NCBI GenBank assembly: GCA_038049695.1
Contig: CP142451.1
Span: forward strand, 66,531,501 to 66,595,500
DNA length: 64,000 bases
Source of the DNA: Cinnamomum chago
Lineage: Eukaryota > Streptophyta > Magnoliopsida > Laurales > Lauraceae
Direction of reading: 5' to 3'
Part shown: positions 21,558 to 36,973 of the stretch, in pieces
Layout: every line of letters begins with the position of its first letter
Position numbering within the stretch: the first letter of the stretch is position 1
Position numbers and translations under genes: made by a program
The notes under the pieces: model-generated
The model's input: the letters and a program-made list of their open reading frames with translations, nothing else
Told to the model about the DNA's origin: nothing
Database searches by the model: none

Positions 21558-22805
21558 TTAGGATTTCTCTTGATATTTACTTTTTGGAATCCACCTATAG
21601 TCTTGAGAGGATTTCTCTTGCAGATTATTTTTAGAAATTCCACCAACACTTAAAGATTTAAGTTGGTAGATAGACTTCTCATCATGATTGATATTATCTT
21701 GAGAAAGATGATTTGTCTTTTGATGTTGGTGAGTTTCTTTTATAATTTCCTCCTCCTTTTTATTTTTGATTTTTATATTTAGATTCTCAACTTTCTTCAA
21801 AAGATCTTTCATTTGGGGTGTTAGAGGAGGTAAATTTGGAAGTTCTTCTTTTATTGGTTCCTTAAGTTTTGGTTTAAATTGTTTGAAATTTTCAAAACCA
21901 AATTGAAGTGACTTCATTTGATTAGACTCATGATTCCTTCGAGTTTTACATTCAAATCTTAGATGCCCATCATTTCCACAATAATTGCACTTTGTCTTGG
22001 GCAAGGAAACATTAGTTCTAGGAAGAGAGGTTTCTCTTTTAACAAAAGTATTAATAAATCCAGGTTCATGTGGGGTTTTCCAATTAAATCCAAGGCCGGT
22101 CATATCTCTATGAAATTTACCCATTTTAAGTAATTGTTCAAATTTAACTTCTCCGTGGATAAACCTATTCTCATACTTTTGCTTGTAATCTCTAAGAATA
22201 GTGATTTGATCCTTAAGGTTAGAGTTTTCCTTTTCAACTTCCTTAATGTTGTTTAGCTCTTTGTGGGCAAGATTTAACTTAAGTTTGAGTTCATTAACCA
22301 AACTGGATCCAAGTTCTACATCTTTTAACTTGGTTTGAGTTTTAGATAGATTTGCTTCAGAAATTTTTAACTTGGATTCTAAATTGTTGATAATTATGTT
22401 TTACCTCAGAATTTGATCTCTTAAATTAGCATTTTCATTGTAAAGTTCATCACATTCTATCTTTAATTCATCTGAATTATTTTGAGCATTAGATAGGTTA
22501 TGTAAGGAGATCATCAATTTAGAATCTAAACAACTTATAGCTTCATTCTTTTCTCTAAGTTCATTATGTAAAGTGTTTAAAGCTTTTGATAGCTTTTCAG
22601 ATTCTTCTTTTAATTTCTTATTTTCCTTAACACGTTCTATGGAGAAAGTGTAGAGCTCATTATAAGCTTGTTGTATATCATCTTCATTTTCATGAAATTC
22701 TTCTTGCTCAAATTGAACAACATGGATTTCATTTATGGAATCTTCATTTGATGAGCAGGAGAGTTTAAGAGAAGAATCTACACAATTTATCAAAGTGGAA
22801 TCCAT
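21558..22805 (-). pseudogene. Gag C-terminal-tail protein: coiled coil plus CCHC knuckle, one in-frame stop
   Basis: The frame opens with MDSTLINCVDSS about 100 bp after the primer binding site and runs 415 codons with only one stop (22401-22403). The N-terminal part is acidic, then has AYNELYTFSI and a long leucine/lysine/glutamate coiled coil. A CCHC knuckle follows (CNYCGNDGHLRFEC), then a basic region and a terminal RWIPK. The order matches the tail of element A's gag: AYEELYELCE, coiled coil, CHFCNQIGHLVPNC, then the protease. Missing are the capsid domain, the first knuckle and all of pol. The equivalent gene in element F is 35537-36973. Both copies are open apart from one stop each, at different places, which suggests long conservation and recent decay. 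Confidence 0.78.
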
Positions 22806-22908
22806 AACAAATGATTTTCAAGAAGGCACAACAACTAGGGTTTAAACTCTAGGTTTTTACACCTAATCAAGAGTTTCAATCCACTTGATTCCTATTATAG
22901 AGCACAAG

Positions 22909-23023
22909 GCTCTGATACCAATTGAAAGTCCTACTCCGATAAGATTTCAAATTGGGGATCCTAGACTAAGGATCAACTCCAGGTTGTTAAGCCCTACAAT
23001 GGAGTAACCTCTCTCTGATACCA
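22909..23023 (-). promoter_or_regulatory. Duplicated primer binding site of element C
   Basis: On the minus strand TGGTATCAGAG follows the 5' LTR at 23013-23023, as expected. A second, better copy, TGGTATCAGAGC, lies at 22909-22920, again preceded by the LTR-end word GGACTTTCAAT. The intervening ~105 bp resembles a short LTR end plus leader, so the 5' junction seems to have been duplicated. Confidence 0.7.
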
Positions 23024-23025
23024 AT

Positions 23026-24883
23026 TGAAAGTCCGGGATCCTTACCCTAGAGGAGGGTGAATAGGGTGAGCTACAACTTAGTGACCAATAATGCCCGATT
23101 TTAAATTCTATAGTTCAATTAGTCACAAGTGATGATATAGAATTAAAATGCGGAAGCTAACAAAAATAATCATAAAAAAGTATTCACCATCACACAATGA
23201 TTTATAGTGGTTCGGCCTTAATGCCTACATCCACTACCGGCTTGTGATCCAACACCCCACCGGATTTCCACTATCTCTGCTTTTCAATAGGCTAAGCAAT
23301 AACCTCTAACACTATGCTTTTCTTAGGCTTAACAATAACCTCTTAGGTTTTGAGGTTCACCCCTAACCTTTACACTTATGCTTTTCTAAGGCTAAGCAAT
23401 AACCTTTACAAGAGATGATTTCTCAAGAAAGTGTCTATACAAACACTTTAAGAGATACAATTTAAGCTCAATACATTTGCCTCTTAATTAGGCTGATATG
23501 AAAGTGAAAATCAAACTCACACAACACTCTATGCAATGCAAAGATGAATGCACATGATGTGTGTGTGAAAACTTCAATCAAAGTTAAAAAGAAAGCTCAA
23601 ATGATATATGCTTAAAGCATTTCATAGTTTAAAGTATAGAGATAGATAAATTGAAGTTGTATTGCAAATCACATGTTCTTTTTCAAAAGACAACCTGTAA
23701 AGATTTCATTAATCAAGAAATGTAAGTTGTAAGAAAATTTAAATCTTAAAAAAACATGTAATCAAATAGCAAAGTTGTTTTCAAAACATAAAGGTTTCCT
23801 ATGAGATCATAGAATGAAAACAACTAGCTAAAGACTCAACTAAGTAGAGAGATCATGCATCAATTAGAATCAAAGATGTTGAAGTAAGCATGATTTGTAC
23901 AACAAGGCAATGACTTGGTTTGAGACTAAGTGATGAATCCAATAATAAATAAATTAAAGATATAATATAATGGATTCAACACATCATAGTTAACATGCTA
24001 CAAGAGATTTTCCAATAAGTTAAACTAACATGTAACAAATGATATGAGAAGAGCAAAGCTTACTAAGATGTTTAACTATAGAACCAAGCTTTGTATTTCC
24101 AAGATGTTCCTCTTGCTCCCTTGAGTTATTCTTGATCTTGAGTTTGCATGATGTTCAGAAAAACTCCCAAGATTGGTCTCCAAAAAGACTCTCAAGACCT
24201 CTCTCAAAATAAAAGGAAGGGTTCTTTTTATAAGAAAAAAATTTGAGTCCAACGGATCTCCTGTCGGTCGACCGACATATAGAGTTCGGTCGATCGAACT
24301 CAACGGTAATGTTACAACGGTCATATTTTTTAAACAATTCTATTTTCGGTTCACCGAAACTTAGTCGGTCGACCGACATGAGACCGACACTTGACCGACA
24401 TAACAAAATGATTGGAAAACATGCTCTCTGGTTTCAGAACCAAATAGAGTTCGGTCAAGTACTAAAACACCTTCGGTCGACCAAACCTCGACCGACAGAA
24501 AAACCTCCTTACAGGAATTGGAACCGACAAAAGCTCTGTTGAGCTCGGTTCACTGGTCGGTTAGCCGACACCTGACCGACAGGGTATACAGTCAGAAGTC
24601 CAGAAGTTCTGAAGGATTTGACTAAAAAAATCTTTGGAAACCAAGTTTAACACAGAAAACTAAAGATTTGTAAGTCAACTAAAATCACATTTGGAATCAA
24701 AATTAAATCAACCAAAAACATTTTGAATAAAACATTATAGGGTCAATTTCCAGACATGATTTTCAAGCTACCAAGATGCAATTTTGAAATTCAAGCTACC
24801 AAGATGCAATGTTGAAATTAGATGAAGTGATGAAAATGAATGCATATGCTAACCATCAAATTGCAAACAACATAGATCTAACA
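23026..24883 (-). repeat. 5' LTR of element C
   Basis: The LTR is 1858 bp, TGTTAGAT to GGACTTTCA on the minus strand. The palindrome cluster is at 24262-24580, with a TATA-like box near 24226-24236. Minisatellite units with CTTAGGCTTAA/CTAAG words lie at 23275-23415. The G run present elsewhere is here interrupted (GGAGGG at 23053). Confidence 0.88.
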
Positions 24884-35362: not shown

Positions 35363-35394
<32 letters not shown>

Positions 35395-35421
35395 TAGGGT
35401 TAGGATCCCAGGACTTTCAAT

Positions 35422-35433
35422 TGGTATCAAAGC
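35422..35433 (+). promoter_or_regulatory. Primer binding site of element F
   Basis: TGGTATCAAAGC lies two bases after the LTR. There is one substitution relative to TGGTATCAGAGC. Confidence 0.85.
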
Positions 35434-35536
35434 CTCGTGCTCTATCTTTTAGGATCAAGTGTTTGGAACTCTTGATTAGGTGTAAGAACCTAGAGTTTTT
35501 AAACCCTAGAGTTGTGCTTACATGGAAATCATTAGG

Positions 35537-36973
35537 ATGGATTCCACTATGATAGATAGTTTAGATTCTTGTGTAGATTCTTCTAGACCCCTCCTTCTTC
35601 CTTCTATTGGAGATTCAAGCTCTCAAACTAATGAATCTCAATGTGACATAAAAGAAGAAGATTATAATGAAAATGAAGAAGATCTTCTACAAGCCTTTGA
35701 GGAATTATATGAATTATCCTTAAAGCTTGAAAAGAAAAATAAAAAGTTAAGAGAAGAATCTAAAAGACTAAACAAAGAGCTAGTCTCTTCAAAAGATGAG
35801 CTTAGAGAGAAAGAAGAAGTAATACTATGTCTAGACTCTAAGTTCATGATCTCTTTAAATAACCTATCTAATACCAAAGATGAACTAAATGAATTAAATA
35901 TAGGAAATGATGATCTTAAAAAGGAAAATTTAAACCTAAGAGATCAATTAAAAAGGCAAGACAAAGACTTTATCAATTTAGAATCCAAGTTGACAGTTTC
36001 CATGGAAAACATGTCAAATGTTCAAAGTAAGTTAAAAACCTTAGAACTTGGATCTAATGTTGTTAATGAACTTAATTTCAAATTAAAACTTGCCAATGAA
36101 GAGCTAATCAAATATAAGGAAATTGAAAATGATCTTTTATAAGTCAAAAATGAAAATTCAATCCTTATAACCAAAGTCACTCAACTTAAAGGATATAAAC
36201 AAAAGTATGAGTGCAAGTTTACCCAAAGTGAAGAGAGACTTGAAAAATTATTTAAATTGGGTAAATCTCATGGAGATAGGACGGGTCTTGGTTTTGATAA
36301 GTATACTTCACATGACCTTAAATTCACCAACACCTTTGTGAAAGGTGAGTCCTCTTTCTCTAGCACTCTTTCTCCTTTGCCCAAAACAAAATGTATTTAT
36401 TGTGGCATTGAAGGGCATTTTAGGTTTAAGTGCAAATTAAGAAGAAGCCATGTGTCTAAACCCATCTTTGAACCTAAAAAGGTAGAATCTAAATCTATGA
36501 AGGGTAAGACACTAAAAACCAAAGAAGACTCCAAAAAGATTAAACAAGTTAAATCAATTAAAATGGAGTCTCCTAAAATAGATTCTAAAAAGTTTAAACA
36601 AGTTAAACCAAGTTTAAAAGAATCTATAAACAAAAAGCTTCTCAACCTATCTCCCTTATATCAACCCATGAAAGAACTTTTGAATAAAGTAACAAAGTTA
36701 AATTTAAAATTCAAAAGTCAAGTAAATGGAGAAAATAAGAAGAAAAGAAAAGTGAATCAATCCCTAAAGAAACAAATTCACCAACATCAAAAGACTAATC
36801 ACCAATCTAAGCTAAATTTAGTCAAATCTAAATATCATGGTGATAAGTTTAAATTGAAAATTTATCAAGTCAAATCTCCTATAGTTGGTGAGAATTCCAA
36901 ACTAGACCTCAAAGATCAACCCTCTCAAGACCTTAGGTGGATTCCTAAAGTTAGATACTTAGACAAACCTTAA
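35537..36973 (+). pseudogene. Gag C-terminal-tail protein of element F, one in-frame stop
   Basis: The ATG at 35537 (MDSTMIDSLDSC) aligns with the start of the element C protein; an in-frame ATG at 35522 is an alternative. It runs 478 codons with a single TAA at 36140-36142. An acidic head is followed by LLQAFEELYELSLKLEKKNK and a long coiled coil (residues ~60-230). Then come the CCHC knuckle CIYCGIEGHFRFKC, a lysine-rich linker with repeated KKIKQVKS-like words and a terminal RWIPKVRY. It corresponds to the second half of element A's gag without capsid or enzymes. Such a protein might bind element RNA through the knuckle and join autonomous particles through the coiled coil (inference). Confidence 0.78.

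What the first reader, a model, noticed from the sequence alone, without database searches (positions are those of the whole stretch)
21558..36973. A non-autonomous retroelement type that keeps only the tail of gag
Elements C and F lack capsid, protease, integrase, RT and RNase H. Each still has one long ORF (415 and 478 codons) that begins just after the primer site. Both show the same order: acidic head, AF/AYNELY-type motif, coiled coil, one CCHC knuckle, RWIPK end. Element A has this block inside its gag, after the first knuckle. Each copy has a single stop, at a different place. That suggests the tail was kept by selection, perhaps as an RNA-binding adaptor that recruits the element's RNA into element A particles. 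Non-autonomous elements with a whole gag (TR-GAG) are known; a tail-only version is, to my knowledge, unusual.
Basis: partly seen in the sequence, partly recalled or inferred. Interest (0 to 1): 0.78.

Follow-up and report, generated by a model that had tools for sequence, protein, structure and literature searches.

The report
Retroelements keeping only gag's tail
In a plant genome, a very numerous group of jumping elements has lost the genes for its shell and enzymes yet keeps, under natural selection, one protein made from the tail of the shell gene, which suggests that this small protein helps each element hitch a ride on its complete relatives.

Summary
C (17499-24883, minus) and F (33643-42911, plus) are complete LTR elements with 5-bp target duplications. 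Each carries a gag-tail ORF just after the primer site and no detectable capsid-type gag or pol. They are not isolated deletions: tail searches of the 1.06-Gb genome gave over 6,000 loose candidates each. In the F list 68 of 140 rows have an unbroken 470-492-codon frame; in the autonomous relative A's list 48 of 131 have 1609 codons. Codon models give omega 0.38 for 18 intact F-type ORFs, neutral simulations 0.80-0.82. Constraint is moderate: C-type ORFs alone are marginal, and a variant-frequency test showed no decline. A, F and C carry Sirevirus polypurine marks. I read these as high-copy, partner-dependent Sireviruses, close to TR-GAG and to wheat's Quinta/Sabrina, but keeping only the RNA-binding half of Gag. 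The likeliest role, a cis-preferring RNA-binding and co-assembly adaptor, is inferred. Relatives occur in other datasets. New variant of a known kind.

The parts
17499..24883 (-). Element C, complete: 5' LTR 23026-24883, 3' LTR 17499-19219, internal 19220-23025; target duplication GTAAC at 17494-17498 and 24884-24888; LTR divergence K2P 0.041
21558..22805 (-). C ORF1, tail-of-gag protein, stop at 22401-22403
19851..21133 (-). C ORF2, broken into pieces (20621-21133, 20286-20792, 19851-20282); Transposase_32 (PF20167) protein; open over its length in L054 and L055
   Evidence: 31.7 bits, under the cut-off of 45; 53.9 bits in L054, 41.3 in L055
22909..22920 (-). C primer binding site TGGTATCAGAGC; a second LTR-end/primer-like copy lies about 103 bases upstream
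19222..19229 (-). C terminal polypurine octamer AGGGGGAG, starting 10 bases before the 3' LTR; two more copies upstream
33643..42911 (+). Element F, complete: LTRs 33643-35419 and 41138-42911; target duplication TTAAA at 33638-33642 and 42912-42916; inserted in an older inverted LTR (31948-33642 plus 42912-43034); LTR divergence K2P 0.019
35537..36973 (+). F ORF1, tail-of-gag protein, stop at 36140-36142
35422..35433 (+). F primer binding site TGGTATCAAAGC, two bases after the LTR end
38661..40428 (+). Solo LTR of the same family nested in F, duplication TTGTG at 38656-38660 and 40429-40433
41128..41135 (+). F terminal polypurine octamer AGGGGGAG, 10 bases before the 3' LTR; five more copies between 40557 and 41067
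85..4915 (-). Element A coding region: gag (Retrotran_gag_2, CCHC) and pol in two overlapping frames; tail block at residues 138-321 of the 1374-codon frame; close relatives in the genome have a single 1609-codon frame

Best explanation
[quoted passage not shown] The tail ORF evolved under purifying selection while these elements multiplied (shown for the F type; marginal for the C type alone). There is an F type (ORF1 only) and a C type (ORF1 plus a Transposase_32-type ORF2 that is more conserved) (shown). Mechanism, inferred: an autonomous Sirevirus with matching LTR ends, primer site and polypurine tract supplies particles, protease, reverse transcriptase and integrase. The tail protein binds the RNA that encodes it through its knuckle and basic tail, and docks by its coiled coil on the homologous part of the partner's Gag, so that its own RNA is packaged. 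Preference for the RNA in cis is what lets selection see the ORF.
For: Copies: 6638 and 6242 loose first-look candidates for the C and F tails, 138 and 140 scored. In the F list 68 of 140 rows have an uninterrupted frame of 470-492 codons and one exceeds 534 (typed); that one is a chance fusion with unrelated sequence. In A's gag list 48 of 131 rows, counted by eye, have an unbroken 1609-codon frame. Five of six F-type copies fetched at 7.5 kb show an LTR pair. Selection: ML omega 0.377 for 18 F-type ORFs (2dlnL 134.4) and 0.392 for 23 F plus C (154.4); neutral simulations 0.82 and 0.80, lowest 0.68 of 50, and 0.80, lowest 0.77 of 15, for the 23-sequence tree. ORF2 omega 0.158 for 4 copies over 300 codons (193.2) against 0.96 simulated. 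Cis marks: AGGGGGAG 10 bases before the LTR in A, F and C and repeated in the linker; GGTCGACC palindromes in the LTRs (criteria from passages of PMC2829016). Architecture: predicted helices 45-207 and 218-292 in relative P0002 (whole-model mean pLDDT 54.5, higher over most of residues 50-200); basic C-terminus in F. Cis preference: the abstract of PMC9073684 argues that constraint among copies requires products to act preferentially on their own insertion. Two apparently complete relatives of 504 and 521 aa elsewhere.
Against: Variant-frequency test on the 18 ORFs: nonsynonymous/synonymous 37/24 for singletons, 6/7 for doubles, 45/33 for three or more copies, no decline (Fisher p 0.73); in the 487-codon subset common variants are 39/17, near neutral. 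In maize Sireviruses this ratio does decline (PMC9073684). C-type ORF1 alone: omega 0.517, just under the lowest (0.53) of 20 neutral simulations with mean 0.79. The first 60 residues show no constraint (0.94). Omega was computed on uninterrupted copies only. The knuckle scores under Pfam's cut-off. No transcript, protein, binding or mobilisation data. The partner is not identified, and the LTR-based census did not complete.
Confidence: 0.55

Rival explanations
1. The tail protein is an interference factor: a Gag fragment that co-assembles with the partner's Gag and slows it, as yeast Ty1 p22 does, rather than a helper of its own RNA.
For: [quoted passage not shown] the tail ORF likewise matches the C-terminal part of a Copia gag.
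Against: Inference: a purely trans-acting inhibitor gives its own copy no advantage over other copies, so it would not explain omega 0.38 among copies. It would also harm the partner that these elements need.
Confidence: 0.15
2. The ORF is needed in cis only to be translated (RNA stability, export or escape from nonsense-mediated decay), not for its protein.
For: It starts close to the primer site in most copies looked at (primer site found upstream in 20 of 22 F-like regions; 25 of 30 C-type loci), and the first 60 residues are unconstrained.
Against: Open frame alone predicts omega near the neutral simulation (0.8), not 0.38. 45% of differences in six F copies fall at third positions. The three knuckle cysteines, YKQKY, NTFVK and RWIPK are invariant in 12 aligned sequences; the knuckle histidine is lost in one of them (L052).
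Confidence: 0.15
3. Random internal deletions of autonomous elements, with no function for the tail.
For: Non-autonomous derivatives are common in plants (PMC9744471 passages).
Against: The same architecture in copy after copy, with LTR pairs in 5 of 6, relatives of the same length in other datasets, and omega below every neutral simulation of the F tree.
Confidence: 0.04
4. The tail is a supply protein used in trans by the whole particle pool, like GAG from wheat RLG_Quinta, without cis preference.
For: RLG_Quinta encodes GAG plus a domain of unknown function and is proposed to contribute GAG to RLG_Cereba (PMC11302176 passages). The C type also has an extra protein.
Against: Inference: a tail without capsid cannot build particles, and trans-only supply is weakly seen by selection among copies.
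Confidence: 0.2

Closest known systems
TR-GAG elements
   Same: Two LTRs around a gag-derived ORF, non-autonomous (PMC9784723 and PMC11728184 passages)
   Different: TR-GAGs are described as encoding the GAG protein; here the capsid-type gag domain (Retrotran_gag_2) was not found and only the tail is kept
RLG_Quinta with RLG_Cereba, and RLG_Sabrina (wheat)
   Same: Non-autonomous LTR families that keep a gag-derived ORF, in Quinta with a second domain, and share ends with an autonomous partner (PMC11302176, PMC9744471 passages)
   Different: Those are RLG (Gypsy) families and keep a GAG; these are Copia/Sirevirus by cis marks and keep only the tail, some with a Transposase_32 ORF
Sireviruses
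   Same: AGGGGGAG 10 bases before the 3' LTR, repeated in the linker; palindromic LTR motifs; optional extra gene in the linker (PMC2829016 passages)
   Different: No capsid-type gag, no pol
Ty1 p22 restriction factor
   Same: C-terminal half of a Copia Gag made as a separate protein (PMC4599808 abstract)
   Different: p22 comes from an alternative transcript of Ty1; here it is the gene of a separate element
Athila ORF with Transposase_32 (PF20167)
   Same: Same Pfam family as C ORF2; found in a sunflower Athila (PMC11728184 passages)
   Different: Athila is Gypsy (recalled); C is Copia-type by cis marks, and ORF2 follows a gag tail

Membership tests
Sirevirus (Copia) | AGGGGGAG starting 10 bases before the 3' LTR | tested here: met
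   A, F and C
Sirevirus (Copia) | Several copies of the octamer in the linker | tested here: met
   F 6, A 4, C 3; fetched C-type L054 and L055 show only 1
Sirevirus (Copia) | Palindromic CGG-CCG motifs in the LTR | tested here: inconclusive
   CGGTCGACCG in A and C; F shows only GGTCGACC
Sirevirus (Copia) | Reverse transcriptase in the Sirevirus clade | not testable with these tools
   no RT found in C or F; A has RVT_2 but no RT tree was built
TR-GAG | Two LTRs with target duplication around the gag-derived ORF | tested here: met
   C and F; LTR pair in 5 of 6 F-type copies; the C type has two ORFs
TR-GAG | ORF encodes GAG with its capsid-type domain | tested here: not met
   no Retrotran_gag_2 in the ORF pieces or in two intact ORFs; no match to A's 299-aa gag part in 13 targets
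Non-coding LARD (definition recalled) | No coding capacity | tested here: not met
   F-type ORF1 and C-type ORF2 under constraint
Quinta-like partner system | LTR ends, primer site and polypurine tract shared with an autonomous family in the same genome | tested here: met
   A shares LTR start and end bases, PBS and PPT; overall LTR similarity is only partial
Ty1 p22-like restriction factor | Inhibits movement of the full element | not testable with these tools
   no experiment

The most novel reading that the evidence does not exclude
A satellite lineage of Copia retroelements lives on the particles of its autonomous relatives by means of a self-encoded, capsid-less Gag tail that tags its own RNA for packaging; one branch adds a second, strongly conserved Transposase_32 protein, making a two-gene satellite with neither capsid nor polymerase.
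Probability: 0.4. Interest if true: 0.75.

Novelty: new variant of a known kind. Interest (0 to 1): 0.62.

Why it matters
It separates, in nature, the RNA-selecting half of Gag from the shell-building half, and shows selection acting on the former alone. That makes packaging specificity and cis preference in plant retrotransposons directly testable with a small protein. It also suggests that plant elements filed as non-coding may carry short conserved genes that domain searches miss: the tail ORFs tested scored under Pfam's cut-offs.

Tried and rejected
Random deletion was rejected. A 779-codon frame in the F list looked like a longer form but is a chance fusion with unrelated low-complexity sequence upstream. 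A viral-contig scan with the tail profile found no relatives. The AlphaFold model of ORF2 relatives is too weak to use (mean pLDDT 46.3), and no fold search was run on either model. The ORF at 30089-30811 after D's pol hits the same Pfam family as ORF2 but is only distantly alike (BLASTP E 0.44, hhalign probability 61.8), so I do not call them the same gene. NG86 alone was judged biased: its neutral null is 0.60-0.80. The noncoding-divergence comparison is usable only without L042, whose downstream region did not align.
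Full report
What is there. Self-comparison of the window shows two complete LTR elements. C lies on the minus strand at 17499-24883 with target duplication GTAAC. F lies on the plus strand at 33643-42911 with target duplication TTAAA; it was inserted into an older inverted LTR and itself carries a nested solo LTR at 38661-40428 with duplication TTGTG.

Homology of the tail. 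A profile of 12 tail ORFs (10 F-like, 2 C-like) aligns to residues 138-321 of A's gag-pol frame, after A's first knuckle, with probability 97.1. tblastn with A's gag and gag-pol against 13 targets (C, F in two stretches, ten fetched copies) matched only A residues 125-221, in 8 of 13; both F stretches, L052, L053 and L056 gave no hit, and no target gave a gag N-part or pol hit. A pol remnant at 28124-29631 served as positive control. The tail has an acidic head, predicted long helices (45-207 and 218-292 in relative P0002; whole-model mean pLDDT 54.5), one CCHC and, in F, a strongly basic end. The knuckle scores below Pfam's cut-off.

Copies. The window lies in a 1.06-Gb genome of 14 contigs. 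The C tail gave 6638 loose first-look candidates with 138 scored, the F tail 6242 with 140 scored, A's gag 5205 with 131 scored. In the F list 68 of 140 rows have an unbroken frame of 470-492 codons and 33 have a stop inside the match; the list favours close, intact copies. In the A list 48 of 131 rows, counted by eye, have an unbroken 1609-codon frame. Of 6 F-type copies fetched at 7.5 kb, 5 show an LTR pair at 93.6-98.3% identity (one of them only partial), and internal lengths are about 3.6-4.0 kb. Of 22 F-like ORF regions picked by hand, 12 have an uninterrupted frame of 483 codons or more and 20 have the primer site. Of 30 C-type loci (the window's C among them), 5 have an uninterrupted ORF1 of 401 codons or more and 25 have the primer site.

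Selection. GY+F3X4 codon models on uninterrupted ORFs only, interrupted copies dropped beforehand: 18 F-type, omega 0.377, 2dlnL 134.4 against omega 1; 5 C-type, 0.517, 15.2; all 23, 0.392, 154.4. Neutral simulations give 0.82 and 0.80 (lowest 0.68 of 50) for the F tree, 0.79 (lowest 0.53 of 20) for the C tree and 0.80 (lowest 0.77 of 15) for all. So the F result is firm and the C result alone is marginal. Reading-frame control on six F copies: mean NG86 0.45 in frame, 0.75 and 1.39 out of frame. Against: in the frequency test nonsynonymous/synonymous counts are 37/24 for singletons and 45/33 for common variants, no decline; in the 487-codon subset common variants are 39/17. In maize Sireviruses the ratio does decline (PMC9073684 abstract). 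Constraint is absent in the first 60 residues.

The second ORF. C-type copies carry a 393-394-codon ORF2 downstream of ORF1, open over its length in L054 and L055 and shorter in L053 and L056. It hits Transposase_32 (PF20167) at 53.9 bits in L054 and 41.3 in L055, cut-off 45. Omega over 300 codons of 4 copies is 0.158, 2dlnL 193.2, against 0.96 (lowest 0.72 of 20) in simulation; two further copies, L036 and L037, were dropped there because they lack the start motif that I keyed on. By coordinates, 38 of 55 C-like tail rows have a listed ORF2 downstream on the same strand within 6 kb, and 37 of 41 ORF2 rows at 64% or more have a C-like tail upstream. F shows no such ORF. The search found 7 related proteins; four are named as hypothetical proteins of avocado, the best at 68% identity.

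Relatives of the tail. Four proteins were found in other datasets, two of them apparently complete at 504 and 521 aa, both ending in RWIPK plus a few residues. Their organisms are not named. In a tree rooted on A's single gag tail they fall among the tail-only ORFs: P0004 with the C type at 97% support, P0002 among the 531-codon F-like ORFs at 56%, the others weakly placed. With one outgroup sequence the tail-only clade itself is not tested. The avocado hits, matches on contigs C1-C12 and the genome size suggest a Lauraceae host; this is a guess.

Kind. A, F and C carry the Sirevirus polypurine octamer at the fixed place and in repeats (criteria from passages of PMC2829016). The palindromic LTR motif is clear in A and C, weaker in F. 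No RT test is possible for C and F. TR-GAG membership fails on the capsid-type domain. Nearest in logic are RLG_Quinta and RLG_Sabrina of wheat (PMC11302176, PMC9744471 passages).

Mechanism. Inferred: packaging in the particles of an autonomous Sirevirus, with the tail protein as an RNA-binding and Gag-docking adaptor with cis preference. The argument for cis preference follows PMC9073684 (abstract and passages). An inhibitory role like Ty1 p22 (PMC4599808 abstract) is the most interesting rival.

Novelty. Searches for prior description listed no tail-only gag element by title or abstract start; they cover open-licence PubMed Central text only and show at most 20 papers each, and I read listings, abstracts and passages, no whole paper. 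I rate it a new variant of a known kind.

Noticed in passing
85-4982 and L057: A sits next to another copy and shares an LTR with it that is 99.76% identical over 1640 bases; only about 440 bases lie between A's pol end and its 3' LTR, so there is no room for ORF2.
   Followed up: partly
28124-30811: Copia pol remnant followed on the same strand by an ORF with Transposase_32 (76.4 bits), the place where Sireviruses can carry an envelope-like gene.
   Followed up: partly
22909-23026: C has two LTR-end/primer-like sites about 103 bases apart; loci L009 (C itself), L015 and L020 show the same doubling of the LTR end.
   Followed up: no
G000: A second ORF2-like group (46-51% identity, frames of about 410-560 codons, many open) away from the listed C-like tails; host element unknown.
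   Followed up: partly
50907-51824 and 61235-61832: Tandem repeats with period about 192 bases, and a second array.
   Followed up: no
45867-47802 and 53078-54369: Further LTR copies related to those of C and F, apparently solo or truncated.
   Followed up: no
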